Origin: Antedon mediterranea
Lineage: Eukaryota; Echinodermata; Crinoidea; Comatulida; Antedonidae
Direction: 5' to 3'
Assembly: GCF_964355755.1 (NCBI RefSeq)
Contig: NC_092674.1
Coordinates: forward strand, 30,368,001-30,432,000
Length of the DNA stretch: 64,000 nt
Shown: piece by piece, positions 14,737 to 53,976 of the stretch
How positions within the stretch are numbered: position 1 is the first letter of the stretch
Layout: every line of letters starts with the position of its first letter
The notes under the pieces: generated by a model
Told to the model about the DNA's origin: nothing
What the model saw: the letters and a program-made list of their open reading frames with translations, nothing else
The model's database searches: none
Made by a program: the position numbers and the translations under genes

Positions 14737-16555
14737 ATGACAAGATGTAAAGGTAAGAATTAATTGTTATTATATTTAGTTTATTCGAAATATAATTTTC
14801 TTCTATATTCTAGATAAATTTATAAATTTAAATTGAAGAATTATATTAAGGTGAAGTTTCAACTTTAAAGTTATTAGTTTTGGATCTCTCACACACAAAC
14901 TTTATGCAATATAAGTTATGTTCAGACTGCCTTATGTCTGAGGTAAAGTTACGTCAGACATGCAACATTACTTTTGATGAGTGTCCACATGATGCTTAAT
15001 AATACCCCTTTCACACCAAAAGCAAAACTCCGGAGACACCCCGGAGTTGACGCCCCACTGTTTGGTGTGAAAGGTAAAATCAAGCAACTTTAAAACTGAG
15101 AGCGAACCGGAGAGCGAACTGCGGGGACACCCCGGTGTTTTGGTGTGAAAGGGGTATAATACAAGGAGCACATTGTCTGTAGTAAGGTTGAAGTAACTTA
15201 ATACAAACAAACCCTTCAGAGCTTACTGACTGATATTTTGTCAATAACTATAGTTTATTTATTTATATGTTTTGTTATTATCATGGATTTTTGAAACTAT
15301 ACTGCATTGCAACATAAATTGGTGTGTTTAAATATATACAAAATTTGTTTTAAAAAGAATGTATAAAAAGTGTGGTCTAGATAACTGTTTTGTTTTAGTA
15401 AATAAAACTGTATTTATTCAATGACATATAAATAGTAGTACAAAAGTATACAAACAATAAGACATAATAAAAACATTTCATTTAAGATAGATTGCAAATA
15501 ATATTACTTTTAGATAATAATAGTGTAAATAAAAACAAAAACAATCTTTATACAGCATAAAAATCAGGTACTATGAACTACCATATTGCAATAAACGTTT
15601 CAAATTGTGAAAAATATTTGTTCAGTGGGGAATATCTTTACATTATTTTGCAGAAATATTGCTTGGAAGTCTAATATGCGTTGGCCTACTTATGCTTACA
15701 TCAAAAGACCAAGTGGATGCCAAACAGATTTTAGATGTTCCAAAAGGCGATTCAATTACCTTACCGGCCTTATTAGAAAACGCAAATATAAATGGAGTAT
15801 GGCAATTGAATGGTCAGAACGTAACATGTGACCCAAACATGCTGGTAACTTACGACAGAGTACTTAGTAAATCCGAGCTATACATAGAACATGGTGAATA
15901 CAATCATAGCGGCCAGTACAGCTTCATTGTAAATGGTGACATCTATAAAAGTTATAGAGTAAACATCATTGGACAAATAACTAAAAAGCCCGAATTAGAA
16001 GTGCGAGAAATAAGTAGTAATGAGGTGATTTGGCAATGCATTACGGACAACGTACATCCACATCCAAATTTCTACATAGATGAAGAGCCAGTACAAATCT
16101 TGTTCATAAATGACACCAACATTTGGGTTGAACACACCACAACAGTTAAAAAAAGTGTCACTTGCTGTGTGCAATTGGAGCGTAACTACAAAGAATGTTC
16201 AACGAAAGGCTTTAAAAAACCGGAAATGACCTCAACCATCGATCACAGAGACAGTGACCTCTTGACAAACCTGAAGAGCCCTACTACTACTGATCAGAAT
16301 ACTGCAACGACTAGACCGTTCTGGACAAACCCACTCACAGATTACAAAGATACCACTACTCAAGCCTTGATAGTTATTTTGATAGTCCTGGTTTCACTAA
16401 TACTAATATTAATTATAATGCTTTTTCAAAAAGTAAACAATTACTTTAAAACCAAAATGTATGACAAAGTACCAACTTATGAAACAGTGGCAATCGAAAT
16501 GACAACTATCCCAAACCCTGAACCTGATGTAACTAGTGTGACATTAAGGGAGTAA
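14737..16555 (+). CDS. Two-Ig-domain transmembrane receptor, gene 1
   Basis: Exons 14737-14752 and 15654-16555 join at a phase-1 intron (AAAG/gtaagaa ... tttgcag/AA). The tiny first exon supplies the ATG and completes a signal peptide of about 28 residues. The 305-residue product has an outer Ig-like domain (about 30-112; Trp55, Tyr94) without the canonical disulfide: Ala44 and Phe96 sit where Cys is usual, and a lone Cys64 remains. A second Ig-like domain follows (about 118-195; WQC with Cys134, VTCC with Cys176/177, extra Cys187). Then come a Thr/Pro-rich stalk, a membrane helix (about 243-263) and a tail with Y275DKV and Y281ETV. N-glycosylation sequons include NVT and NHS. AATAAA follows at 16566. 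A cell-surface receptor or adhesion role is inferred; no orthologue is recognised. Gene 2 at 20234 is a close tandem copy. Confidence 0.8.
15002..15157. mobile_element. MITE, 156 bp, in the intron of Ig receptor gene 1
   Basis: The ends are exact inverted repeats: ATACCCCTTTCACACCAAAA and TTTTGGTGTGAAAGGGGTAT. Flanking AATA (14998-15001) is repeated after the element (15158-15161), consistent with a 4-base target duplication. Internal CTCCGGAGACACCCCGGAG is palindromic. The intron of gene 2 has no such element, so insertion followed the gene duplication or was lost there. Confidence 0.75.
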
Positions 16556-18315
16556 ACAAATTAAGAATAAATTGTTTTAACACTCAAAACTATTTCAACT
16601 CATAAAAATGTGTAAAAAATCTCTTAAGGAAACCGTTACTTCTTTCTATAGCTTCTGTTACTGTGACCCATGAAACAAGGAGAAAAAATTAGTCTAAACA
16701 GATATTGTGGAAAATTATCATGTTACTTGATACTGTACTTATGAATACGTATGTAAAAGAAAAAAAGTTTATATCTATCCATTTACTTAACTTGTTAATT
16801 GAAAAAGTGTTTTTTTTTTAACTGTAATTGGTGAAAGCCTATCTTAGTTATGTTTATTTTAAAATTAATTTAAATACATTTAGTAGTAAAATAGATAATA
16901 TAGAATGTTCTGTATAAAGAATGTTATAATATAGAGTGTTATTCAATAACAAATAATATAAAACTAGGTACCATTATATTCAAATATTGAACAAGTGTTT
17001 TTTACAACAATATATTACATAACTAAGTATGTACATTAGGTAACATTTTAATTTTAGATATTTAATATAGGTAGTAACTACTAAGTATTTCTTACAGATA
17101 TTTACATATGTACACACATGTAAACATGTAAACTAATATTTAAGTAATAAATTAGGAGATAGGATGCTTCTCAATAACAAAAAATATATGGTAACAAACA
17201 ACATTATATTTTAATATTGAAAAAGTATTTCTTATGTGTATATTAATGTAAGTTAAGCATGAACATTAGGTTAACTAATATTTATTTTATATTTAATAAG
17301 ATAGGGTGCTTGTCAATAAGAAAAAAATATTATATAGGGACATTATAAAGCTAATATTTAATAATCTATTCTTAGGAAAGAAAATGTATTTAATAATATT
17401 GTAGAAGTGTCATATTTAAATAAATATTTATTTTGTACATTAAGGTAACTATTCTTCAGGAAAATTGTTCTTAAATCTAATATATTATTTGTTTTAAGTA
17501 TACAGTATCTTATAATTAAGGAAATAAAATGTTTTATTGATTTTATTATTATTAAGAGAATATTGTATTTTAATTGTATGTTCTAGCACAGAATATTGTA
17601 TTTTAATTGTATGGTCTAGAACAGAATATTGTATGGTCTAGCACAGAATATTGTATGGTGTAGTGCAGAATATTTCATTGATAATATATTAATAAACACT
17701 AGAATTACAAATTCAAATTGTTCAGTTATTTTTGTCAGGGCTTTTGACTTTGAAGTTTGAATGTTATTATGTTGCGACCCTTTATAAGGTTTGTTCTAGC
17801 ATACTCTATGTCAATATGTAGTCAATGGGTTGAATATTGTTGAACGGGTTCAATATTGTGGAACAGGTTAAACAGAATGAATAGCCACGTTCACATAAGA
17901 TTTTATCATGCTTTCGTATCCTGATATTGAATATCACGTTAACAGGAAAAGCGTTCACATAGAATTCAACATCGTGATAAGTATGCTAATGAGGTGCACT
18001 GCACTATTTTTGTTTCTACGGAGCGCCAAAAGAGCAACGATAATAAAGGACTAAAACTCAGAGGAATGCGTCAATTTCTCATGCATTTATTGGTGAAAAA
18101 CACGTTTAATTTCAATATATTTGTTAATTTGTCAATACAAATGCTGTAATATGTTACTGCTCTGTTTTCAAAGAATAATAATCGATCCTAAATCAGCATC
18201 ACTACCTAGCCTAGACCTACAGTAGGAATCCTACTAAGGATATTATGATGAATTGTTCTATTTTATTCTTTAAAAGGTTAACGAAACCGTGTACAGTATC
18301 AACAGTAACATTTTT
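16556..18315. other. 3' flank of Ig gene 1, part of a tandem duplication
   Basis: The first kilobase matches the 3' flank of Ig gene 2 (22224-23700) with many indels. A minisatellite at about 17563-17672 (CAGAATATTGTAT, GTATGGTCTAG units) is shared with 23431-23583. No ORF of interest is seen. Confidence 0.6.
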
Positions 18316-18319
18316 CGTT

Positions 18320-18418
18320 AAGCTCTGTCTACACTATAAAACTTTATGTTACAAAAAATGTGATATGCCCATATAATATGGACATGATGTTGTCATGTCA
18401 GTACCATATTTGGGTATA
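18320..18418. mobile_element. Palindromic MITE (AAGCTCTGTCTACACT family), truncated
   Basis: The left end and centre of the family described at 52822-52974 are present. The right arm is missing where the interspersed repeat at 18415 begins. Confidence 0.65.
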
Positions 18419-19135
18419 CCAACGTGATTGGTTGAAACTGCGTCACATGACTACAGCTGCGAGGATCGTAAATCGTATATATCCTCGAGAACGATGATAT
18501 TGACTGAGTAATTTTCACGTAATTATCGTGTCCCCTGTCATTAATCATATAAATTCTCGAGTTCGATGATATTGACTGTGTAATTTTCGTGTGCAACACT
18601 CGCGTTTGCCGATAAATAAACAAAAGTCATCTACTGGATCTTGAACTCGGGATGGAATTGTCACTCCATCATAAGACAACGCTTCAACCGCTGCGCCACG
18701 GAACTTGCTTGAAGAAATTAATCTTTTAAACTATTTAAGCTATGCATACATAGCGCCCTCATTTGTTATTAGTCCTCCCTAAATGTGATGAAACACCGTT
18801 TGTGATTGGTCAATACTCACGGTAGTAACCTAGTACGCGCTGAACATCCAGCGATTCGGCTCCTCGAAGAGAAGAAGACGAATTGTTTATTCGGTCTACC
18901 TGATTATAATATTATTATTAATAGGCCTATTGATGGAAATTCTTCTGTTAATTTAAACGACCTAGGCCTAAGTGAATATTTTATTGCCAAGGAATCATTA
19001 ATTAGTAATTATCTGTATATTATTCTTCGCAAGGTAAGGTGTCTAGGCAGGCTTGTTTACATACAATACAAATACTATAGGAGGCCTAGCCTAGCTTCAC
19101 CCAACCCAGCAGACTTGTTCTTGGCTATATAATAT
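18415..19135. repeat. Interspersed repeat shared with 7010-7665
   Basis: The better copy of the pair. Read on the minus strand, 18630-18705 has tRNA-like A and B boxes (GTGGCGCAGCGGTTGAAG; GAGTTCAAGATCC). A 108-codon plus-strand ORF at 18806-19132 covers the right half, but it is not preserved in the other copy, so I do not call it a gene. Confidence 0.65.
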
Positions 19136-19160
19136 AACAGATATCGTCTTCTATATCGGT

Positions 19161-19300
19161 AAAATATAAGATTTGACATCCCCTCCGGATGATATTATGT
19201 TCTCGGGGAATTATATATATCCCTCAGCTGCCGCTTCGGGATATGTATATTCCCTCGAACATAATATCATTCCCTCGGGGATGTCAAATCTTATATTTCA
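19161..19300. mobile_element. Palindromic MITE, about 140 bp
   Basis: The ends ATATAAGATTTGACATCCCC and GGGATGTCAAATCTTATAT are inverted. Inner pairs GATATTATGTTC / GAACATAATATC and a short centre make the whole element foldable into one long hairpin. Confidence 0.75.
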
Positions 19301-19404
19301 CCTCTAAGCAGGCAATATCTGTATAATATCACTACTAGCTAGCTGTACACAGGGCATAGTTGTTTGCTTGACTTAACAGGGTATTTCCCTACTACTACAC
19401 AGCA

Positions 19405-19720
19405 AGCTATGGTAACTAGTTTGGCACTCTGCCAAATTCAACATCAGTGACAGAATCCCCAAAGAATGGAAAATTCCATTGAAAAATCATTCTAGTCAAC
19501 AATTCGAGAATATTTGATGAATTGAAACTGCGCAATGAATTTCTATCCATTGATAGAACATTCTAGTCAACAATTTGAGAATATTCAATGAATTAAAACT
19601 GCGCAATGAATTTCATTGTAATGAAGATGTAGCTTGGTGGTTAACATGCTTGCTTTTTCCACCCAAAGTCCAGAGTTCAATGATCCTGACCTGGTGTCAT
19701 GGCTGTAACTCCCTAAACCT
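19405..19720. repeat. Extra copies of the Ig-gene upstream region, followed by a tRNA-like SINE piece
   Basis: Blocks GGCACTCTGCCAAA, CATTCTAGTCAACAATT, GAGAATATT and TGCGCAATGAATTTC occur twice in 19405-19615 and match the upstream region of Ig gene 2 (20041-20180). No first exon follows. From about 19620 the sequence becomes tRNA-like (TAGCTTGGTGGTTAACATGC ... AGAGTTCAATGATCC), related to 39785-39890. Confidence 0.65.
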
Positions 19721-20040
19721 CAAATAAAACTTTATTATAAATTATAAAATAGCTACAGTAATCCATCCTCTAATTGGTGACTTGCTTGCTGTTGGATATT
19801 TAAGAAATGTTGAAAAAATAACTAAATAACAATTGTTTTGAAGACGTAATAATAAAACAAAAATCAGAAAATTGAAATAATTTGTTATGAATTTTAAATT
19901 AAAATTTATAATTTTTCAGACTAAAATATAAAAAATGAGAAACATTAGTATTATTAGTATTATTGAATATTAATAATAAAAATACAAACTCAGATGACAT
20001 TTTGAGTTTATCTACATAGCAATAATAAGCTAACAACAAA

Positions 20041-20233
20041 CTTGACACTCTGCCAAAACACTCACGAGATATCTATGAATGGAGAGTGGAAAGTTCCATT
20101 GATAGAACATTCTAGCCAATGAACGAGAATATTCGATGAATTAAAACTACGCAATGGAATTCATTGTAATAAAGTGTGTTCATGGAGACAAACGTATATT
20201 TCAACACCTTTATCAGATGATAACAAGAACAAT
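20041..20233 (+). promoter_or_regulatory. Upstream region of Ig receptor gene 2
   Basis: Homologous to 14555-14736 in order and content, ending in the same ATCAGATGATAACAAGAACAAT context before the ATG. The transcription start and core promoter elements cannot be fixed. Confidence 0.45.
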
Positions 20234-22223
20234 ATGACAAGATATAAAGGTAATAATTATTTTTGTCATAGAAAGTTGAACTCAAATGTAATTTTCTTCT
20301 ATATTCTCAATAAATTTATAAATTTTAATTGAAGAATTGAAGATATACAGTAGTTTATATTTTATTTATTATTTATATTATTATATTACATTAGTGTTAT
20401 TATAGTATACGGCACAACTATATTGTATACTGCAGTGCAACATAAATTGGTTTTTGACTAATAAAGTAATATAATAGTAAAATATACAAAATTTGTTTGA
20501 AAAATGCATGTTTATACGGTCCATGACGGCTTGTGAATAGTGCATAAAACTGCATTGCCTTCAATGACAAATAAATATCAATAAAAAAATAGATTAAAAA
20601 AAGTAAACAATACATAATAACCTTTCATATAACGCTTTCAACATGTAGCATTAGTCCCACTTATGTGCTCAATATTTGTGTGCGAAAAAAAATGTGATTT
20701 TAATAAATTGAATTTATAAATTTTTTTTTGGTGTGTGGTGGGTCTACGGTTGGGAGTGAAAAAAAAGCTAAAATGCATATTAATGACGTCATGTGACCAT
20801 TACAGCTATTTTGGAATTCCTGTTTTTGTCAATTCAATGATAAAAACTATTTTTCTATAAGAAATTCTTATGGAATATGGGTTTCCCTCTGGATATATAA
20901 AAAAAAATTATTTTTATATAATAAAAAATTACGCATAAATCAAAGTTTTGGGTCAAAATCTTAGAATGACATTTTCCAAAAAAAAAATGGGTCACAGCAA
21001 AATTATTACTTCAGATTTTTTGTTTGCGTATTACAATGAACATAATATTGCTCTATTGGGGTGGTAACATTTGGTAACTGGGGGATGTTTTTGCACCATT
21101 ATAGATAATGATACAACTTTCCAAGGTGATAAATAATAGTTTTTCCCATACCTGATAATACCGGGTATGCAGTTCAATGATATTTGTTGATACCCGGTAG
21201 TACCGGTTATACAGCATAAAAGTCAAGTACAGTAATTAACTACCGTATTATGTCACCAATAAGCGTTCAATATTTAAAAAATTATTTTTTCAGTGGGGAC
21301 AATATATCTTCTTTTTTTCAGCAATATTGGTTCTGACTCTAATATGCATTGGCCTACTGATGCTTACATCAAAAGACCAAGTGGATGCCAAAAAGATTTT
21401 AGATGTCCCAAAAGGCGATTCAATTACCTTATCAGCCATATTAGAAAACGCAAATATAAATGGAGTATGGCAATTGAATGGTCAGAACGTGACATGTGAC
21501 CCAAACATCATAGTAACTTACGACAGAGTACTTAGTAAATCCGAGCTATACATAGAACATGGTGAATACAATCATAGCGGCCAGTACAGCTTCATTGTAA
21601 ATGGTGACATCTATAAAAGTTATACAGTAAACATCATTGGACAAATAACTAAAAAGCCCGAATTAGAAGTGCAAAAAATAAGTAGTAATGAGGTGATTTG
21701 GCAATGCATTACGGACAATGTAAATCCACGTCCAAATTTCTACATAGATAAAGAGTCAGTAAAAAACGTAACCATGAATAACACCAAAATTTGGGTTGAA
21801 CACACCACAACAGTTAAAAAAAGTGTCACTTGCTGTGTGGAGTTGGAGCGGAACTACAAAGAATGTTCAACGAAAAGCTTTGAAAAACCGGAAATGACCC
21901 CAACTATCGATCACAGAGAGAGTGACCTCTTGACAAACCTGAAGAGCCCTACTACTACTGATCAGAATACTGCAACGACTAGACCGTTCTGGACAAACCC
22001 ACTCACAGATTACAAAGATACCACTACTCAAGCCTTGATAGTTATTTTGATAGTCCTGGTTTCACTAATACTAATATTAATTATAATGCTTTTTCAAAAA
22101 GTAAACAATTACTTTAAAACCAAAATGTATGACAAAGTACCAACTTATGAAACAGTGGCAATCGAAATGACGACTATCCCAAACCCTGAACCTGATGTAA
22201 CTAGTGTGACATTAAGGGAGTAA
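20234..22223 (+). CDS. Two-Ig-domain transmembrane receptor, gene 2
   Basis: Exons 20234-20249 and 21322-22223 join at a phase-1 intron (AAAG/gtaataa ... tttttcag/CA) and give 305 residues, the same length and layout as gene 1. About 28 residues differ from gene 1, all before residue 206; the last 100 residues (stalk, membrane segment, tail) are identical. The densest change is in the second Ig domain, where EEPVQILFINDTN of gene 1 is KESVKNVTMNNTK here, adding a sequon. The outer domain again lacks the canonical disulfide. The intron is longer (1,072 versus 901 bases) and poorly alignable. AATAAA lies at 22234. The excess of replacement over silent changes suggests selection for diversity, but no ligand or role is known. 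Confidence 0.8.
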
Positions 22224-22870
22224 ACAAATTAAGAATAAATTGTTTTAACACTCAAAACTATTTCAACTCATAAAAATGTGTAAAAAATCTTTTAAGGAAA
22301 CCCTTACTTCTTTCTATAGCTTCTGTTACTGTGACCCATGAAACAAGGAGAAAAAATTAGTCTAAACAGATACTGTGGAAAATTATCATGTTTCTTGATA
22401 CTGTACTTATGAATACTATGTAAAAGAAAACAAAAAGTTTATATCTATCAATTTACTTCATTTGTTAATTGTTTTGTAACTGCAATTGATGAAAGCCTAT
22501 CTTATTATGCCTATATTATAATGTTTGTTAAACTCAATTTGAATACATTTAGTAGTAAAGTAGATAATATAGAATGTTCTGTATCAAGAATGTTATAATA
22601 TAGAGTGTTATTCAATAACAAATAATATAAAACTAGGTACCATTATATTCAAATATTGAACAAGTGTTTTTTACAACAATGTATTTATATAACTATGTAC
22701 ATTAGGTAACATATTTCATTTTAGATATTTAATATAGGTACTAACATCTAAGTATTTCTTACAGAAATAATTTATGTTTATGGCATTTACACACATTTAA
22801 ACATGTAAACTAATATTTATTTTAAGTAATAATTAAAAGAGATATAATGCTTCTCAATAACAAATAATAT

Positions 22871-23018
22871 AAAGCCTTGTCTACACTATCAAACTTTATG
22901 TGTCAAAAAAATGTGGTGTGTACAAATATGGATATGATGATATTTAAGCAAAGCACTACCATATATGGCCACATCAAACTTTTTTGACAAATAAAGTTTG
23001 ATAGTGTAGACAAGGCTT
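22871..23018. mobile_element. Palindromic MITE (AAGCTCTGTCTACACT family)
   Basis: Ends AAAGCCTTGTCTACACTATC and GATAGTGTAGACAAGGCTT are inverted. It is present downstream of Ig gene 2 but absent at the homologous site after gene 1. Confidence 0.8.
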
Positions 23019-23430
23019 AATGTAACAAACAACATTATATTTTAATTAATATAAGAAATGTGTATATTAATGTAATTGTAAGTTAAACATGCACATTAGG
23101 GTAACTAATATTTTTTTTAATATAAATAAGATAGGGTGTTTGTCAATAAGAAAAAATATTTAACTAAGTACGTACATTAAAAAATATTTATTATATTTTA
23201 ATGTTGAAAAGTGTTTCTTGTATATAACAAAGTGAAACATGAAATAACTATTTATTTTAGAAATATTTAATATAAAACTAGGCATGGTACTATTAAGTAT
23301 TATTAACAACATTAAAATATTAATAAATAAATTAGGTACTTATTTAATAATCTATTCTTAGGGAAGAAAATGTATTTAATAATATTGTAGAAGTGTCATT
23401 TTTAAGAAAAATATTTATATAAGTATATGT

Positions 23431-26800: not shown

Positions 26801-29800
26801 TCACATGCGCAGAAAGAATTGATACGACGCACCTTGATCATTGGTTGTCATATTTTAAAAGCTCAATACTGTATACTACTGTAATCACATACTGGAAATG
26901 TTGAATAACAAATGGTAATAATGTTTACATAATGATTGCCATGGAAATTGTTATGAATATTATGACAATGCAGATAAAAAGCAAATACCAATCTATGATA
27001 CTTCAATTACATCATAATTTTAAACTATTATTTTGTTCAACCACTTATTAAATGAATACCTACATATGATCTTTACCAATAATAATATATAAACTTTGTA
27101 ATAATTCTAGACTTTAATTCATTGTGATGAGGACATAGACTGGTAAATTGCTGTTAATGTTGTTAATGCAATTTCTCCCAGTACAATCCTACCCCTCATT
27201 TTTATTAACAAAATGTTATACCATGAGACTATTGTACATACAGTACAGTATTAAAAGAAATCACACTTATCCTATAAAAAATGAAATGGATAGATTATAT
27301 ACACGTGAAATTTGACAGCAAGGTGCAGTACAACAAATAACACTTGTGGTCAATAGGATGGTGATATTGGTTGAAGGTTAATTAAAATATGTGATATATA
27401 GGAAAACATGAAGGCAGATGTTAGGTACAGTTGGTTGACTTATGCATTTTCAGTAGAAACCCTTCTTTGAGACACACCTACACCTCCCCCCCCCCACAAG
27501 ATGTGGGGGGGGGGGGGGGGTGTTACTATATTTTATCACACTACAGACAACCCATATTTAGAGAACATTCTTATTAAGAGGGACACTTTTGTTAGGTGCT
27601 GAAGTGTCACCTTAATTAGGAATCTACTTTTTAAGCAGTAATGACACTCAATAATGGTATATCTGAAATCTTTTATTAAAGCACATGGTTCCTTTGATAG
27701 TGGTATGGCTCCACTTGTCTTATTTGCATCCTGTATAAAATGTTATTATAATTAAATGCAATGTTAACAATATTGTCATGAAAGTGTGTGTATTGATATT
27801 AAAAATCACACACGTGAAAAGGCACTTGATTCCAAACAAAAAACTTACATGTTGAAGAGTCCTCATATTCATCTAAAACGAACACAAAATTATGATGTAT
27901 TACACATTTTGTAATGGGTAAAATCTCAATCATTGAACCACTTTATATGTTGGTATATTGAAGATGGGCCACTAAACTTTAAGACTATGTAAAAATAAAG
28001 TCACATGGTAAACTGAAATAAAAAGACTTAAAGTAGATTATTCCTACCTTTTGTCCCAAGTACATAGAACCAGGCTCTGTTGTTCATGCCAACTACAAGA
28101 TGATACGGACCAAGGGCAACAAATGTTGGTTCGACCTCTATGCTGATCGGGAAAGCTGGTTCCTGAAAAAGTATGAAGATGTAGTTATACAGTGCACAGA
28201 TGAGCGACAAAATGCCAACAAAGTTTTCTTATAATAACGTTTGACAGGTGTTCTAAAAGTGTTCCGTCTTCCGTGAAAATAAAGGATATCTTAAATACAA
28301 AATGGTTCCTTTAAGTCTGTTTTCCATTAGTGAATATATTTGCGCGAATCAAACATTCCTGATTTATGATTGGTTGCGCATTTTTCCACGTCACAAAAAG
28401 TAGATGAAAATATCAATACGCAATAAATTCGGCTAGTGGAAAACAAGCTTTGAATAATAATAATGTTCAATTTATATAGCGCGAAATGCAGAGTGCCTCT
28501 AAGCACAGAACATTCAACAAAAAATCTAAACAGCACACAATTAATTAATGTTGAAAGCGCAAATTAAAAATGTGGGATTTAACATAACTTCAATTAAAAC
28601 AAACAATAAATGCTAAATTGTCTATAGTACAGATAATAAACAAGAACATTGCGGTAGGATTTACAAGATATCTTGTCTATAATACAGATAATAAACAAGA
28701 ACATTGCGGTAGGACTGGTCTAACTGACAAAAAAATATCATTTTAAAACTTTATTTATTCTTATTCTTTACCTGGTCAACATGGTTGACAACAGTGACTT
28801 CTAGTAATGATGTGAGGTAAGCAATACGGGTTCCCCATGCATCTCCCAACACCGGTAACTTTGTAAGATATACATGGACACTGCCTCTAGTGGAGCTGAC
28901 CGCTAGCAATTGTCCATCATCAGTCCAGGCCATCTTACCCAAGCCTTTAGTCTCATCTTCCAACTCAACAATAGCATACATTTCTTTCAGCTCACTTAAG
29001 TCATGGATTTTAATGCTGTAAGATCATCATATTATTTAAACATTGTACATACACACTTATATGATTTTGATGATGAGTAAACATATTCGTAAGACGACGT
29101 TTGTTTGAATGCTGACAGTAAGCTTTTTAAGTCGTTTTGTAACTGTGAAGCTAGATGTAACTGCTAACATGTTTTACAACTTGTTTATATGATAAAAATA
29201 TATTTTTGCAACTCTCTCTCTCAAATCAATGACAAGTATAAATTCTATAAATAAACCAAAAAGATGAACTCTTCACTTACGTGTTATCTCCACATGATGC
29301 GGCTTTGTTAAGTGACAACGAGATGGCGATTGACGTTAAATTGTTTTTGTGGTTACGAGCTTGGAACAACTCTTGTCCGATCTCACTTATATGTGTTGAG
29401 ATCACAACCAGGTAGCCATTGGAAAATCCTATCATAATGTAACCATCACCATACCTATAGTGAAGAAACAAATTGTTTTTATTTAAAATTTTCCTATTGT
29501 CCAGCGCTTAGAGAGGCATTTTGAGCTATATAAATTGAACATCATTATTATATTTACATGTATTAAATTCCAATTTTATGACTATAACAAAAAATCCTTT
29601 CAAGACACAATAATAATTAATTGAACACACATTTATTGGCAGCATTGGCTTGCCATACATGTTCTTACCATTTATATCCAACAACATTGCCATAACGAGG
29701 CTGAAACGCAAGCTCAATCGGGTTATCAGAGTCATTTAGGTTGTACAGGAATATGGTTTTATGACCACAACATATGCTTACCTATGCAAAGAAATATACA

Positions 29801-32800
29801 AATTGAAATTAGAAAAATTCTTATATAAGTAAAGCTCTGTCTACACTATCAAACTAGTTTGACAAAAATGTGATGTGCCTAAATATGGTAGTGATATGAT
29901 ATCATCATGTCCATATATGGGCACATCACATTTTTTTGTCGCATAAAGTTTGATTTATATTTTGTTTCAGTTCTGTGCTATTTGTTATTTGTCTTCTATG
30001 TGTTATATGACAATACTATAACGTATGGTGAGAGTCATTAAAGAATTATTGAATGATAGTGTAACAGAAAGGTAACAAGTTACAAAAAGTAAACAAATGC
30101 TAGACAAATTAAGAGAGAAATTAAGTAATTTGTGTACTCACTGTATTTTCACCATTGGGGCTTCTTTCATCAACTTTCATTTCTGAAAATTGAATATCAT
30201 GAGGTTCTGAACGAAGAGGTGTCTAAAGAAAAAAAAAGGATTAATTCAAACAGGTAGTGGATTATTCAAAATTGAAGTAACCACCACACATCTTTACCCA
30301 TAAACCTGGCTAAACATGTGGCTTAAGTCATCGTTGACATATAGTAATAGCTGACAGGGTACAACTTTTCAAGCAAAGAGTCTGTAGTTATAAGCCGGTT
30401 GTAGCTGGCTAATAGGGAGGTTTCGCAATCTTACGAATACGATAACGAAAACGGATACGTCACGCACACGTATTCGTTTTTCGTAAGCCAGTAACATTTT
30501 GTTTCGCATGGAAACAAATTATTGAGGGCGCCGTCCAAAATATGACTGCGGTAAATTTGAGCGAAGCGCAGGTACGTGTTGCTTGGTGCTTGGCTGCCTA
30601 GGCCTAGCGTAACATCAAAGCGAGTGAGGACTTTAAAAACTGCTATTTATCAAAATTGACCTGGCAATTTAGTAAATTACTTTAGTAAATTACTTTCAAT
30701 AAAAGTATAATTATATTGTAATCATGAATCATTCCTGATTCAAATGCAAAATGTGCAAAATAGATCAAAAACTATACTTGTTTTGTAGTTACGAATATGA
30801 CTGGTGATATTCGTCAACACGAATACGCTTTACGAATATGAAATGGGGATCAGCTCAAAATGTGTGACGTACTGTATCCGTTTTCGTTATCGTATTCGTA
30901 AGGTTGCGAAACCTCCCTATTATATTCATTCTATTTACTTTTATTTCAGATAGTACATCCATATACAAAATATACAAAAAAGATAACAAATTTCACCAGG
31001 AAATTAACAATAGCATGTTCCACCTTAAATTTCCTAAAATATCAACGCTGATGTACAGTAGTTTGGAATACTGTAGTCATAATCATGGTATGTTTATTTT
31101 TCCATTCAAAAGAATTAACAGAAATTTGATTTCCAAACTGGCATATCAAATATATAAACAAAACAGTAAAAAATAAACAGAAAATTGCACCATGACATTA
31201 ACTATGGTTTTCATAATTAGCTTATTACAACTATGATGAATTCTGTTCTTAAAACTATGAATGGAGTTCGTCCAATATTCATAAAAATGAAACATCATGC
31301 TTGCGCTATTATAATATGTTAACATATTTAAGTGTGCCTACCTGCTTAATTGTATCACCCTCCTGGTTACTGATTGATATAGACTTATCTTCACTACCAA
31401 GACATAGTAGGTTCTTATTGTTCCAGGCACCACAGGTTATTTTTCTGGTGTGTTTGCCAAGAATTGGAACTTTCCTGAAATGTTCATAAAAAAAAAAACA
31501 AGATGAATAAACTAAACATAGATAATAAAAATAAATTAAACAATACAAATTGAATACAGTATGTTTGAAGAAAATTATATTATTACCATATATAACCGAG
31601 AACAGTCCCAATAAGGCTTGGGTATGAAATTGGGAGTTACACATGGAGTTTTATTGAGTACATACCTTGAGGTTTGGTGGTTATATATAAGGAGATTGCC
31701 TTTGCTGGTACCAACAGCTAATTGTGGTCCAATTCTTGACCATCGGACAAAGCTGAGGCCATCTTTGAACCCACTGTCCAGTTGAGATGTCTTGTGACTG
31801 TTAGCATCCCAAAGAAAGATGACTGGGCTACGTTCACAAACCACGGCTAAGGTGTCACCATCTTTGTCCCATTCAAGGCTGTTGCAAATGCTACACAAAA
31901 AAATAGGTCACAAATAATATTTATGGTTAGAACAATGACAGATAGATAATATATTTTTTCCTATATAAAATAAATGAACTACAGTGTATGAAAGCATTTT
32001 TTACGTTGTATTCAGTCTAATCAAATGAAGTGATCAATGATCAAGAAGAATAATAAAATACTTTTATTGTAAAGATTTTATAACTGGTTATGACGTAATT
32101 CTATTGTATTTTAAAAAATATATTTTTTTTAAAGACAGTATGCTGTAATTTTGCCACCAGCACTATCAGGAGAGTCTTCTACAGCGATATTTTTGTTTTC
32201 TGACAATCCGCCAGGATAGTGTCCTGTGTTTTCCTATGCTTGTTTTTGTTTTCTGACAATCCGCCAGGATAGTGTCCTGTGTTTTCCTATGCTTGTTTTT
32301 GTTTTATGTAATTTTTGCTTTGTACTGTTTTTTTTATTGTATTTCTTTTTCTGGGAAATAAATGAATATGAATATGCATGGTTATTCCATAGTTCAAGGA
32401 TGAAAACTTTTCTAATTTCCTATTTTTGCTTCTTAGCATAAATAAACAGGCCTCTAAGCTTTTGTAGTATGTTAAGGTACAGTACTACAGACAGTACTCT
32501 AGCCTATCGTCAACTCTCGTCAAACTGTCGAGAGAAAAAAACATTAGCAAACTTTCTTTTGGTTGGGTAGTAGAACTTAAAATAATAACTTTACCCAGGA
32601 AGGTTAATTTCATCAACAAGTTCTCCATGTCTGTCAAACAAGTTGACGGTGTTACTGGTGCCAGATGATGCCAAGTAATTGCCAAGTGTTTTCTGCCATT
32701 CAAACTTTACTGCACCCGTTCCATTTGTTTTTTCTGTGATTTGAAAAACTCTCTGAAAAATTAAACAAGGAACACCACTAATGTATATAGGCCTATAAGC

Positions 32801-36412: not shown

Positions 36413-39400
36413 ATGGCGATGACCGGTGTGTTTTCCTTGTTTTTACGAACATGTCCTGCACCAGTAACTTTATTTCCACTTACAAAAGCTTATATTATAC
36501 GAAAATACTGCACATCAAAAAGTGTATCAGATGTTTTAAAATTGGATATTCTACAGACGACGGGAAATATTATTACGAACCCGGTAACTTAGTTTTGTTG
36601 TTAGCCCCCACGTCCACAACATGCATGCTAGTGAATTAGAGAATAGGCTGACTCACTCACACTCACAGCCTTATATGCCCCGTGGAAATTGACCTAGCTT
36701 GCCAGGCCTACTTAGCTGGGACTGTAAGAGATTAACGACTCAACCACATGACCTCTTTTATTTATTTATTATTATAGACTACTTTCTTTATATTTCTCTA
36801 TGTTTAAAATAATTTATAATAATATACAATTTTCCCAATTTTGTTTCTGTATGTTTTTTTAGGGATGGGTACAAGCTATTCGTTCACATAAAGGAATATG
36901 TTTTCTTGATATCAATGATGGTTCATGTATTGACTCCCTTCAAGTGGTAGCAAAGTCAGATGCTATGCCAGAGTAAGTCGGAATTATTATTTCGATTAAA
37001 AAAAAAAAAATAGCGTAGAGTAGAATTCAGGATTGTTTAAACGGGAGAGCGCTAATATAATAAATTTTATTAATATTATTATTTATATATATATTAGTAA
37101 AATAATCATAGTTTGTCAAAAATATATATCAAAAAGTGGTTAATATTAATTTAATTTTAGCTATCAAGCAGGGAGCATGCATTTTTTTTTATTGCTTTAT
37201 TAAACAATGAAAAAAAAACAACTTTAAATTATTATTTTTTTCCAATTATGAAGTGAAATAACAATTGGATGTTCAGTACAGATAGAAGGATCGTTGGTAC
37301 GAAGCAAATCCCCAGGCCAGTCCTCAGAACTCAAGGCAGATATTGTCAAAGTCATTGGAGAGTGCAATCCACAGGTAAATGTTACCTCTCATTTAGATTC
37401 ATTAGATAAATGGTCACAAAACCGAGTCCACATTTCTATGACATTATTAACTATAACACAAAACAAGATAATGTAACTCTATATGCACCACTCCACACAC
37501 ATGACAGTATGCATACAAATTGCAATGAGCTAGAGCCAGAGTGGAGAAATAGCCTTCAACAATGAAGTTTGCTCTAAGAGTACAGCAACACTCATTGGGC
37601 CTGCAGTGTCTTGCTGGTATAGTAGGCTGCTACTCTGGGCCTGCAGTGTCTTGCTGGTATAGTAGGCTGCTACTCTTTCACTTCAGTATACCATCATAAC
37701 TAATTTTTTTCTAATAACTATTTTACAATAACAATATTCTATTTTCGTTGTCACACAGGAGTATCCGTTCAAACCAAAGGCACGGTATCATGCAGACTTT
37801 TTGCGACAGCTTCCTCATCTACGATCAAGAAACAATATTTTTAGTTCATTGTTAAGAATTCGGAATGCGGCAACAATTGCGACTCATAAGTTTTTCCAAG
37901 ATAGAGACTTCCTGAATGTACACACCCCGATTATCACGTCCAATGACTGCGAGGGCGCTGGAGAACTGTTTGCTGTTAAGGTTTGCGCTGTTCTTATATG
38001 TACAAAGCACTTTCATGGAATGTTATTTTTATTTTGTGCATGCAAAAAAAAATTACATTAAGACAGATTTTAAAACTCAAATTCTATGTGCTGCACAAGT
38101 CATAATATATATCTCGGTATCTTTATTTTTAAAAACATGACAATTCACTGAGGCAAATAAAAATCTGTAGCAGCCAAACATTTTTTAATAATTTCATACA
38201 AAAAAAATATATAAAAAAAAACCCAAAAAACAAAAGAGAAGCAGCAAAATTGAAAATGTTCGTAATAAAAATAATATAGGAATAATAATAGTTTCAACAT
38301 GTTGTATAATGTATTTTTTCAGTCTGCAAATACAAAAGTAGAGGATGTCAATTTTTTCAATGTTCCTGCATATCTAACTGTTTCTGGTCAGTTACATTTG
38401 GAATGCATGGCATGGTAAGACTTTAGAAATAATTTCTTAAGCTCTGTCTACACTATCAAACTTTATGTGATGTGCCCATATATGGACATGGTGATTTCAT
38501 ATCACTACCATATTTGAACATCACTACCATATTTGGGCACATCACACTTTATTAGTCCAACTTGTTGATAGTGTAGACAGAGTTTAGATAGTCTCACTCC
38601 ACTCCTGCTGTGTAAATAGATATCTTAAAATGTCTTGTCTGATTTTCATAAATTTGTTTGGCCCATGGGACTGTGTGGGGTAGTACACTATCTTTTGTGT
38701 TCTGTCTATTTAATAATATATTTCTTTATTATATAAGTTCTCATAGCAAAGTGTACACAATAGGGCCAACGTTCAGGGCTGAGAACTCGAAAAGTCGTAA
38801 GCATTTATCAGAATTCTACATGGTTGAAGCGGAGATTATTAATACAAAAACAATAGAAGATTTAACACAAGTAAGAATAATGTTAATGAAGATATCAAAT
38901 AATTGTTTTACGGTCATGGACTAACAGACAAACAGACAAAATTACATATTTCCTTTTCACAATCCATTCTCCACTAATTTATTATATCCATAACGCATTT
39001 TAAGTAAAGTGAAAAAAAAAAACTGAATATAAACATTGTGTAAGTTTTTGTACTAAAATTAATTTACATTACTGTATATTTAGTTGATTGAAGATTTTGT
39101 AAAAGAAACAACACAGCATGTTCTTGAGGAAAGATCAGAAGACGTTTGTTTATTTCACAAGCAAGTAGCGCCAGGTCACAGGGTACAGTATACTGTATAA
39201 TTATTAAAATGCCTTATTTAATATTTCATATGAATGTTACTTGTGATTGAATAATCATAATATAGATCATGTTATATAACACTTAAATAAATTCCTGTCA
39301 TTTGATTGGACGATTGTGGGTCACATGGCATGCAATAGTATGATGATGATATTAAACTTTTTGTTTGGTTCTTTTCTTACAGGAAATCATTGATAAAATG

Positions 39401-40976
39401 CTGAAATGTAATTTTAATATGTAAGTACTGTATTTTAATAATAATAATGGTAGTCATATATAGCGCCTAATACAATATTTCTAAGCATTTTTCACACTAA
39501 AACGATCCATAAAATATCCTAACCAAAAAAGTTAGAAAAGCAGAGGAACCATTTACACCGCTCCTTCTCCAGCACTTTGAAGCTCCCACGTGAAACTAAG
39601 CGATCAACATACTTGCACATTTTAAGACAACAACATTTATTTTAATTTGCTACATATTTAGTATATCATACACAGAAGCAATTGCACTCTTGGAGAAGAA
39701 CTCAGACAAATTCATCAATAAACCATTTGTAAGTAAAAATTTGTTTTTTGAAAAAAATAGAAATGTAAATCAAGAGTGTAGAGTAGAGTTGTAGCTTAGT
39801 GGTTGATATGCTTGACTACCGATTCAAGGATCCTGTGTTCAAATCCTGTCAGATGCCAGGATTTTTCTTCTCATGACAGGAACAACTTCATTACCACAGA
39901 CTTGTTTAAGACTTTGTTTATGGAGAGAGTCTTGTGTATATGTTTGTCTTTTGCCACCTTTGAGGAGGATAGTGAATTAATTTGCTTCCTTCGCAATTTG
40001 CCATAATATATTAAAACAATCTGTACTTCTTTTCATTTTTAGTGGGGCTGTGATTTGAATACGGAACATGAGGTGTTTTTGGTGCATTATTTTGATGATA
40101 CACCAACATTTGTAGTAAACTTTCCAAGCGAAATAAAAGCATTCTATGCAAGAGAGAATGACGACAGTCCACAGACGGTAAGGCTTTCTCTTTACTCCTC
40201 CTTTACATTTAGAATACAGTATTTGTCTAAAATTCACAATAGCGCAGTTTAACTTTTAAATAATATACTATAGTTTTATGTATAGGTCTTACAATGATGA
40301 AGGTGTTGCCCGAAAGTTCTGCTAATTTTTCTGGCTGTTTTACTTTATCGTTTTGATTTAGCTTTTCGGTTTTTTTTGTATCTCCATTGAGATCCAGCCA
40401 CTGATACCCACAGCATTGTCATTTTTTCAGTAATTTTCCTTTGGATTTATATATATATATATATATGTTTTATATTTTATGTATCCCTTTAATTTTTCAT
40501 TCATGTTTAAAACTTTGTAAATCTTGTCTGTGTATTGTGATTTTAAAGTTTTATTGTAAGTTTTTAAATATGTTTTTATGAATGTTTTTAATCTATTGCT
40601 CTAAACAGGACTAACAGGTGCAATATATGGTATGCTCTTTAATCCTGTATGAATAAGTTAAAAAAAATCTCATACTTACTCTTTGAAGTACGACTGTTTC
40701 CAACAGGTATCAGCAGTTGATTTACTGGTTCCTGGTATTGGAGAGCTAGTTGGTGGAAGTCTCCGAGAAGAAAGAACAACTGTTTTAGAAGAAAAACTTA
40801 AAAATAATGGTTTATTAGATGTGTACGATTGGTACGTAGATCTACGAAGGTTTGGTTCGGTACCACATGGGGGTTTTGGATTAGGGTTTGAGCGGTATCT
40901 ACAGTTTTTGTTGGGGGTAGAAAATATAAAAGATGTTATACCATTTCCACGGTTTACTCATTCCTGTAGATTATAA
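36413..40976 (+). CDS. NARS2: Mitochondrial asparaginyl-tRNA synthetase
   Basis: Eleven exons: 36413-36583, 36863-36972, 37254-37374, 37759-37980, 38323-38414, 38738-38870, 39084-39182, 39383-39420, 39662-39728, 40043-40177, 40707-40976. They join in frame to 485 residues (human 477). The enzyme charges mitochondrial tRNA-Asn with asparagine using ATP. The N-terminus is Arg/Lys-bearing and hydrophobic without acids, as expected for a mitochondrial presequence. Then come an anticodon-binding OB fold (about 58-135), class II motif 1 (region [17 protein letters not shown]), motif 2 ([16 protein letters not shown], about 251-266) and motif 3 (GLGFER, 454-459). The end PFPRFTHSC matches the family. 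Exon 3 uses a weak acceptor (ATTATGAAG) and exon 4 a weak donor (AAG/gtttgc), but the frame and the homology need both. Confidence 0.95.
37598..37676. repeat. Two-copy direct repeat in NARS2 intron 3
   Basis: GGGCCTGCAGTGTCTTGCTG and GTATAGTAGGCTGCTACTCT together occur twice in direct succession without differences. Confidence 0.8.
38439..38585. mobile_element. Palindromic MITE (AAGCTCTGTCTACACT family)
   Basis: In NARS2 intron 5. Both arms are present (AAGCTCTGTCTACACTATC ... GATAGTGTAGACAGAGTT). A central stretch with CACTACCATATTTG is duplicated. Confidence 0.8.
39785..39900 (+). mobile_element. tRNA-like SINE fragment
   Basis: GTTGTAGCTTAGTGGTTGATATG and GTGTTCAAATCCTGTC resemble tRNA A and B boxes. 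The same family ends 19620-19720. It lies in NARS2 intron 9. Confidence 0.55.
40340..40480 (+). repeat. LINE-like 3' segment shared with 2630-2760 and 8480-8605
   Basis: TCCATTGAGATCCAGCCACTG, ATACCCACAGCATTGTCA and CCTTTGGATTTATATATAT recur in the same order in the duplicated blocks. It lies in NARS2 intron 10. Confidence 0.6.
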
Positions 40977-42007: not shown

Positions 42008-45000
42008 TTAGGAAGATACGTTGATGGTCTTGTAACCAGTAAGGTTCGTTAGTTCCTTGGAGTTGAACCCAACGATAAATTGACGACTTCCGCTGCGCTT
42101 TGGTGTCAAACGAGCATTCAGTTGAACATTCTCATTTCCCCTGATGTGCCTAAACAAAATATTACAAAATGTTATTAATGATATTAATTAATAATATATA
42201 TCATTGATACTCAAAATACTGGACACCCACCCCAATATGTCTGGTTTTCCTGAAATTCTGAATGTATTTATAATGGTAAAAAATTATAATTATTTAGAGG
42301 TCAAGAAGAGTCTGACTGTGGGAGGGGTTGTTATTCAGTCCATTAATGGATTCATTGATTGTACTTACTTGTATGGAATGCTCTTAGAGCCTTCTATGCC
42401 AGGACCTTCTACACGGAACACACACTGGGTCAGGTTGATCTCTAGCGGGTTGGTGAACTTTACAGTTAAATTGAAGGCTTCATCAACAGTCACAGTACTG
42501 TCATCAACCTATAAACCACAACAACATGGATTCATTCATACAATTTTGTTATATATTTACATAATATACAGGGTTCTTAAACTTACAGCACAAAATATTT
42601 TTATACCAGTTCGTATTTACATAATGATATGAATATCTTTATCATTTAATTTGGCTTATAAATAAGCTCCGTCTACACTATCAAATTGTATGTGGAAAAA
42701 AAATGTGACGTGTTCTAATAGACATGATGATGTCATATCAATACCATATTTGGGCACATTACACTTTTTATCAAACTAGTTTGATAGTGTAGACATGGCT
42801 TTAAACTTACAGACACATCCAGATCTGGTTTGGTAAGACTTAAGTCATATGTACCAGAGAAAGCCTGCTTGGTTTGCTGGACTCCAGCCATTATAAAAAA
42901 CTTGATGGCTGCATAGTCAACTAACTCTGGTATGTACTGCTCTGCTTCTACTTTGAACACCAATGTTGTTGCTGAGAAAAGAGCAAAGTATTACTCATTT
43001 AAAATTGTAATATAAACACAGATATTGAAACAATTTGCCTGGGTTAAAGGTTATGTTGACATACAGTATTCACCAATCAGATATTTCCCCTAAATACTAG
43101 GTATTATATCAATGTACATTCATATATAAACAGATATTGAAAATATTTGTTTACAATTGTCTAGGTTATTAGCTTGTGGACATATTCACTAATCATAGAT
43201 ATTTTCCTTAATACTAGGTTGTTCACTGTGATATTCAGATTATAATTTTTTTTAATTTTAGGTGTACATATACAGAATACGTGAGTGAGTGGCCGAGCGG
43301 TTAAGACAGTGGAACCGTAATTACGTAGCCATAACATCGGCAGGGATTCAAGGCTCACTCACTCCATGGTTCTGGTGGTAGAACGAGTCTTCTCGGATAA
43401 GGACTATAAACCGTAGGTCCAGTGTACACATCTAGCTCGTGTGCACTTTAAAGAACCTAGTACATCTTTCGAGACGAGTAGGGGGTTACCCCGGTGTATT
43501 AGTACACCGGGGGTTACCCCGGTGTATTAGTACATCACAGCCACTGATCACCAACTGGGCCCTCTGGGAGACCAGTCTTTGACTGAAGAGGTTACCCAGT
43601 ATAAATATATATTTCAATTCAACTGTGAATACAGATGCTTATAATGACATATTATTAGGTAAAACAATTGATATAGGTAAATAAATCACAATTATAAAGA
43701 AAATTAACAATGACATAATCATATTATTGGTGTAACCCATTTCCAGCATAAAAACTTACAAGCATTTGCCTTCAGTTCCGCGTATTTCTTATCACGGATA
43801 GCGATTCCTGCGACCACACCAGTATAGTACACAGTCTTGCCGTTCACGTTTACAAACAAATTTCTTTTCTCTGAAGTTGTGTTCTTAACGGTGACCTTGA
43901 CATCAAAGTCTTTTCCGATCTTGACATCGTCAGGAATGTTGACGGAGAAGCTGACATCGGTTGAGACGTGCTTTTGGAGACGTTTCTTCCTGCGTATGCT
44001 ACGGAGTGCAGTTGCCACTGAAGTACGCTCTTCAACTGAGCCTGTAGTGAATATTTATAAACAATATTTGTTTATTATAATTCTGTAATACAGCATCTGA
44101 TGTTTTTCACATGTGACGGCTGTATTATGGAAGGTTATTTTAAATTAGGATATAATTGTCACATGTGGGAAATATGATATAGTACCAAGAATTTGCTTAA
44201 ATGTTTAGTTAACTGCTGTTCAAGAAATACAATTTTCCTTCGTACATTTCAAACAAAACTGTTACAGCAGTTTTAAGAGCCCTAGTGGATGGAAGAAACA
44301 AATCTATTGAAATTTATGGACACTTTTCACACAAAAAATACAAGAAGTCAATCAACCAAAACTCTAAATGTTCCAGCATGGAACAATATTTATGGAAAGA
44401 GAATGTTTAATTATAGAGCATCAACCTTATGGAATAATCTTCCTGTACATATCCGTAAAAATTATGAGACACTTAGTCAAGTTGAAATTAAACATCTTGT
44501 ATAACTTCTATTGTACATAGTTTTAATATAGCTTTTACTTTTATTTTTCTTGTATTTTTTTCCAAATCTGGACCTCTTGGGAGACCAGTACTTGTGTATT
44601 GAAAGAGCTATTCCAGAATAAAGAAAGATTTGTATTGTATTGTATTGTATCTAATAACTCACCCTCTCTAAATTTATAGTCATTAGTAACATCATGTCTG
44701 GCGTATCTTCCAACAGCCTTTGTGCTCATATTCATGCCTACATAGTCTGAATCGGTATCAATGACTGAAAAGTTCTAAACATCAAGGAATTTGAGTTAAT
44801 ATTAAACATTAATAAATACTACCAATCATGAAATTTGCAGATAATGACAATTCAAAAGATAAAAAATTAATTTTAATAATGATTAATAAATAAAAAAATT
44901 GAAAAGACAAATAACTGTGCATACCCTTCCATCTTCACTAACTCTCCAATCAACCTTTTCAGCATTGACTTCCGCAAAGACAAATTTGGTGTCGTAATCA

Positions 45001-51108: not shown

Positions 51109-53976
<2,868 letters not shown>

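What the first reader, a model, noticed from the sequence alone, without database searches (positions are those of the whole stretch)
14737..22223. Tandem Ig receptors with replacement-rich ectodomains and identical stalk, membrane and tail
Seen: the two 305-residue proteins differ at about 28 positions, all before residue 206, against about six or seven silent differences in the same stretch. The last 300 coding bases differ by one silent base. Known: such a pattern is typical of immune or recognition receptors under diversifying selection, sometimes with gene conversion holding the rest together. Inference: this may be a member pair of a lineage-specific recognition receptor family.
Basis: partly seen in the sequence, partly recalled or inferred. 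Interest (0 to 1): 0.82.

Follow-up and report, generated by a model that had tools for sequence, protein, structure and literature searches.

The report
Tandem two-Ig receptors, tail homogenised
A marine animal (probably a feather star or a relative) carries two neighbouring copies of a small immunoglobulin-type cell-surface receptor whose outer halves have drifted apart at about the neutral rate while DNA copying between them has kept the membrane and inner part the same; it is a good example of a known process, not evidence of selection for diversity.

Summary
Two intact tandem genes each encode a 305-residue protein: signal peptide, cysteine-poor Ig-like domain, Ig C-type domain, Thr-rich stalk, membrane helix and a tail with two YxxV motifs. 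They differ at 30 residues, all at or before 205; the last 300 coding bases differ by one silent base.

The inference of diversifying selection is not borne out. Counted per site, ectodomain dN/dS is 0.84 (NG86) or 0.93 (codon ML, interval about 0.45-2.1). Raw counts looked replacement-rich because there are 3.7 times more replacement sites. Nine replacements in 13 codons (149-161) are truly clustered, but a post-hoc omega test there is not significant.

The identical tail is best explained by gene conversion: about 500 bp (16253-16750) differs at 1.8% of silent and noncoding sites, against 8% in the ectodomain and 9.6% downstream; introns are 66-74% identical. An unrelated Ig pair 1.1 Mb away shows the same pattern.

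No third copy was found. The host, an ambulacrarian by its Hox cluster and probably a crinoid, has at least 150 V-set exons, many in large single-exon receptors, several with ITIM-like tails. The pair may be an outlying member of that repertoire, but no sequence link was shown.

The parts
14737..14752 (+). Copy A exon 1 (first 5.3 codons, MTRCK)
   Evidence: ATG plus GT donor; 44-nt block around it 93% identical to copy B
14753..15653 (+). Copy A intron, alignable to copy B only in pieces (66-74%)
15654..16555 (+). Copy A exon 2: rest of signal peptide, Ig-like domain 1, Ig domain 2, stalk, membrane helix, tail, stop
   Evidence: hydropathy peak in residues 237-270
15719..15985 (+). Copy A domain 1 (residues 28-116), Ig-like without the canonical disulfide
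   Evidence: sequence pattern W55 and NHSGQY; AlphaFold low confidence
15986..16222 (+). Copy A domain 2 (residues about 117-195), Ig C-type fold
   Evidence: pLDDT 70-88; butyrophilin domain 2 Z 10.2
16082..16120 (+). Replacement cluster, residues 149-161: 9 of 13 residues differ between copies
   Evidence: scan permutation p=0.00025
16253..16750 (+). Homogenised tract: end of ectodomain, stalk, membrane, tail and about 195 nt of 3'UTR (5 substitutions)
20234..20249 (+). Copy B exon 1 (MTRYK)
20250..21321 (+). Copy B intron
21322..22223 (+). Copy B exon 2, same layout as copy A
   Evidence: 90.6% protein identity to copy A over exon 2
21750..21788 (+). Copy B version of the replacement cluster, adds an N-glycosylation sequon at residue 154

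Best explanation
Two tandem paralogues encode small type I membrane proteins of the Ig superfamily (Ig-like domain 1 without the usual cysteine pair, Ig C-type domain 2, Thr-rich stalk, one membrane helix, a tail of about 40 residues with YDKV and YETV). The duplication is old (intron diverged by 25-35%). Exon 2 has since been partly homogenised by gene conversion; the latest tract covers the stalk, membrane, tail and proximal 3'UTR. The ectodomains escaped recent conversion and diverge at a rate not distinguishable from neutral, with one replacement cluster on an edge of domain 2. Shown: gene structure, per-site rates, the homogenised tract in silent and noncoding sites, copy number by tblastn, predicted fold of domain 2. 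Inferred: that conversion is the cause, and that the proteins act in cell-surface recognition or adhesion with a shared signal through the tail and separate ligands for the two ectodomains.
For: Silent plus noncoding divergence in 16253-16750 is 1.8% versus 8% in ectodomain silent sites and 9.6% in the distal flank. Introns 66-74% identical. Ectodomain omega 0.84 / 0.93. An unrelated tandem Ig pair at C5:29.27 Mb shows the same: ectodomain dS 0.36, membrane plus tail dS 0.03. A tandem Ig trio at C1:17.445-17.458 Mb has a block with no difference next to diverged blocks. The domain 2 model matches butyrophilin, B7 and nectin-like Ig C domains, Z up to 10.2.
Against: Only two sequences, so rate tests have low power: omega up to about 2 is not excluded. 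The replacement cluster at 149-161 (p=0.00025 for clustering) could reflect selection or a short tract from a third, diverged donor. Low divergence in the proximal 3'UTR could in part be functional constraint. A role in recognition rests on architecture only; there are no expression or ligand data.
Confidence: 0.75

Rival explanations
1. Diversifying selection on the ligand-binding face of the ectodomain, as in immune or allorecognition receptors, with the tail held by function and conversion.
For: Nine of 30 replacements lie in 13 codons of domain 2 (p=0.00025), local omega about 6 (2 delta lnL 2.9, region chosen after the fact); copy B gains an N-glycosylation site there. The host has a very large Ig receptor repertoire.
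Against: Whole-ectodomain omega 0.84-0.93 and domain 1 about 0.47; the local test is not significant even before correction; only two copies found.
Confidence: 0.15
2. Relaxed constraint: one copy is becoming dispensable and drifts, while purifying selection alone preserves the tail.
For: omega close to 1 across the ectodomain.
Against: Both frames and splice sites are intact, and silent and 3'UTR sites are also nearly identical in the 3' tract, which protein-level purifying selection does not give.
Confidence: 0.15
3. Assembly artefact: two alleles of one locus placed in tandem.
For: High identity in exon 2.
Against: Introns 66-74% identical, unshared insertions, about 2 kb of unshared DNA between the copies and unshared outer flanks.
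Confidence: 0.03

Closest known systems
Mammalian CEACAM1 and its recently duplicated paralogue in ruminants (concerted evolution with escape; PMC7042247)
   Same: Tandem Ig receptors, gene conversion homogenising parts of the genes, with escape from it (from the abstract).
   Different: Here the ectodomain escapes and membrane and tail are homogenised; no sequence relation was tested; the host is not a vertebrate.
Paired receptors SIGLEC11/SIGLEC16 (PMC5701461)
   Same: Ig receptors shaped by gene conversion between paralogues.
   Different: There the extracellular part is homogenised and signalling differs (inhibitory versus activating); here the reverse. The C1:17.445-17.458 Mb trio of the same genome looks more like the SIGLEC pattern.
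Butyrophilin / B7 / nectin-like two-Ig membrane proteins
   Same: Two extracellular Ig-type domains and one helix; domain 2 fold closest to bovine butyrophilin (Z 10.2, rmsd 2.4, 87 residues, 14% identity).
   Different: No significant sequence match in PDB or Pfam; domain 1 lacks the disulfide pair; no B30.2 domain.

Membership tests
Immunoglobulin superfamily | Ig beta-sandwich fold | tested here: met
   Domain 2 modelled at pLDDT 70-88, many Ig C domains at Z above 8; domain 1 not modelled with confidence, so met for one domain only
Immunoglobulin superfamily | Sequence match to an Ig profile | tested here: inconclusive
   No Pfam Ig family listed at E up to 10; a profile of this genome's own Ig receptors gives about 1 bit only. 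Many divergent Ig domains fail profiles, so membership rests on structure
Immunoglobulin superfamily | Canonical disulfide between strands B and F | tested here: inconclusive
   Domain 2 has C134 and C176/C177 at plausible places; domain 1 has only C64
ITIM inhibitory receptors | (S/I/V/L)xYxx(L/V/I) in the tail | tested here: not met
   The tail has YDKV and YETV with K and P at position -2. Other receptors of the same genome do carry the motif
Receptors under diversifying selection | dN/dS above 1 in the ectodomain | tested here: not met
   0.84 (NG86), 0.93 (ML), interval about 0.45-2.1
Multicopy lineage-specific receptor family | Further copies with the same tail | tested here: not met
   Two copies only by tblastn/blastn in this assembly; the tool may miss weak matches and related species were not available
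Butyrophilin/B7 family | Sequence homology or orthology | tested here: inconclusive
   Fold match only, no sequence match

The most novel reading that the evidence does not exclude
The pair is an outlying member of a very large germline Ig receptor repertoire in an echinoderm (at least 150 V-set exons scored, 790 candidates; single-exon V-C-C receptors, several with ITIM-like tails), in which local conversion repeatedly separates a fixed signalling 3' module from a free ligand-binding 5' module, giving different heads on a shared tail.
Probability: 0.2. Interest if true: 0.65.

Novelty: new member of a known kind. Interest (0 to 1): 0.33.

Why it matters
The pair itself is an ordinary case of tandem duplication with partial concerted evolution, and a caution: raw counts of replacement and silent changes mislead without site normalisation. 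The context matters more: the host genome holds a large Ig receptor repertoire, several of its translated receptors with inhibitory-type tail motifs, and two unrelated tandem pairs (this one and one 1.1 Mb away) show the same homogenised 3' end. If general, that would be a testable model of how invertebrate Ig receptors keep one signal while the ligand-binding part changes.

Tried and rejected
Full Pfam scan and PDB sequence search of the protein: no credible hit. Weak tblastn hits at C1, C7 and C8: some lie in real Ig receptor frames, but blastp against them gives E above 1 and a profile search about 1 bit, so relationship is not shown. Structure of domain 1 alone: mean pLDDT 51, not used. 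Tunicate marker GH6 and cnidarian cytolysin families: no match, uninformative because the controls did not ring either. COX1: no match, so no mitochondrial identification; the 20.6 kb contig is nuclear with a reverse-transcriptase frame. Assembly size in papers: no species found. RAG1 and recombination signals beside V exons: none found in a narrow look, not proof of absence.

Full report
Observation. Copy A (exon 1 14737-14752, exon 2 15654-16555) and copy B (20234-20249, 21322-22223) splice to 918-nt frames of 305 residues with GT/AG sites at the same place. The proteins differ at 30 residues, all at or before residue 205. Codons 206-305 hold one silent difference (codon 289).

Rates. In codons 1-205 there are 32.5 replacement changes on 483 sites and 10.5 silent changes on 132 sites: dN 0.071, dS 0.084, ratio 0.84. 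A pairwise codon likelihood model that I wrote for this purpose (F3x4 frequencies, transition bias fitted) gives omega 0.93, with values from about 0.45 to 2.1 within about two log-likelihood units; omega 1 is not rejected (2 delta lnL 0.04). Domain 1 gives 0.47 and the rest of the ectodomain 1.31. Nine replacements fall within 13 codons (149-161), which is non-random (permutation p=0.00025), but the local omega was looked at after the fact and is not significant (2 delta lnL 2.9). In the model these residues lie on the edge of domain 2 around its third to fifth strands.

Homogenised 3' end. From 16253 to 16750 the copies differ at five positions. Counting silent coding and 3'UTR sites this is 5/276, against 10/132 silent sites in the ectodomain (p=0.008) and 36/374 downstream (p=2.6e-5). 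Introns align only in pieces at 66-74%. Since silent and untranslated sites are affected, protein-level selection on the tail does not suffice; gene conversion is the simplest cause. Constraint on the proximal 3'UTR cannot be ruled out as a contributor. The Fisher tests treat sites as independent, and the tract limits were set by eye, so the p-values are somewhat optimistic.

Not alleles. Only about 3.3 kb of each unit is homologous; the DNA between the copies and the outer flanks are not shared, and insertions differ.

Protein. The first 27 or so residues are a signal peptide region; the membrane helix lies at about 243-263. AlphaFold on the two copies models residues 116-195 as an Ig C-type sandwich (pLDDT 70-88); the best structural matches are butyrophilin, nectin-like and B7-1 domains, bovine butyrophilin Z 10.2, rmsd 2.4, 87 residues. 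The top Foldseek E-value was 4.5e-3, so this is a fold assignment, not a family assignment. Domain 1 was not modelled confidently; its Ig nature rests on sequence pattern alone. No Pfam Ig model and no PDB sequence match. The tail has YDKV and YETV, neither fitting the ITIM consensus.

Copy number. tblastn with the whole protein, the ectodomain and the tail, and blastn with exon 2, find only the two copies in the 354 Mb assembly. The tool warns that weak matches can be missed.

Host. The assembly has 11 contigs of 22-41 Mb plus small ones. A cluster on C2 at 7.83-8.21 Mb contains homeodomains that I read, from memory of the paralogue signatures, as Hox1-8, 9/10 and 11/13 types, with one posterior-end gene on the opposite strand. 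The feather star Anneissia japonica keeps Hox1 to Hox11/13a in order over about 480 kb, whereas loss of Hox4 or Hox6 is lineage-specific in other echinoderms (PMC7351957). A crinoid is therefore likely, a hemichordate possible; the species is not identified.

Context. A V-set search returned 150 scored matches from 790 candidates, clustered on C8 (0.38-1.66 and 4.7-6.15 Mb), C11, C7, C3 and C1. Thirteen long frames translated from these and from the weak tblastn hits are receptors with Ig domains and a helix; seven of the thirteen carry ITIM-consensus motifs in the tail, for example LTYAEI and LDYATV. These frames were picked as best V-set matches or weak hits, not sampled at random, and a short consensus of this kind also occurs by chance. 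The window pair has no significant similarity to them.

Comparison pairs. At C5:29.27 Mb, 1.1 Mb from the window, two tandem Ig receptors have ectodomain dS 0.36 and dN 0.21, falling to dS 0.03 over membrane and tail (the tail figure rests on 31 silent sites). At C1:17.445-17.458 Mb, two tandem copies share an upstream and 5' coding block with almost no difference (one in about 1000 nt) and differ strongly after it; two copies there are identical over 1230 nt, which might be an assembly duplicate. I looked at these places because their hits were close together, so they illustrate rather than measure the genome-wide frequency.

Relation to known systems. Concerted evolution with escape is described for CEACAM1 paralogues (PMC7042247) and conversion of ectodomains for SIGLEC11/16 (PMC5701461) (abstracts only). 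The window pair has the opposite polarity to SIGLEC11/16: shared tail, diverged head. The process is known; these genes are new members.

Verdict. A real tandem Ig pair with a homogenised 3' end and a near-neutral ectodomain. Diversifying selection is not shown, and is not excluded for the small cluster in domain 2.

Noticed in passing
G000 C8:0.38-1.66 Mb and 4.7-6.15 Mb; also C11:15.81-16.16, C7:0.03-4.68, C3:18.73-18.77 Mb: Very large V-set Ig expansion: 150 matches scored out of 790 candidates, many in single-exon receptors with long tyrosine-rich tails.
   Followed up: partly
L084 (C8:5122001-5129000): Tandem array of near-identical V-set exons of alternating types in a repeat of about 3.2 kb; hits continue to 5138963. 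No CACAGTG heptamer was seen in this stretch.
   Followed up: partly
L081 and L082 (C1:17444001-17459000): Tandem three-Ig receptors with an identical 5' block and a diverged 3' block; two copies identical over 1230 nt.
   Followed up: partly
L083 and L086 (C5:29271501-29275600): Second, unrelated tandem Ig pair with diverged ectodomains and nearly identical membrane and tail.
   Followed up: yes
G000 C2:7827797-8206132: Compact Hox cluster of ambulacrarian type with one posterior-end gene inverted, useful for placing the host.
   Followed up: partly
window 22869-23021: Palindromic MITE-like repeat (end sequence CTTGTCTACACTATCAAACTTT) with over 3000 candidate places in the genome.
   Followed up: no
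window 28751-31907 (-), 37732-40976 (+), 43719-45200 (-), 51535-53228 (+): Neighbouring genes: WDR19-like, class II tRNA synthetase (probably asparaginyl), transglutaminase-like, and a probable zinc-binding oxidoreductase, the last by eye only.
   Followed up: no
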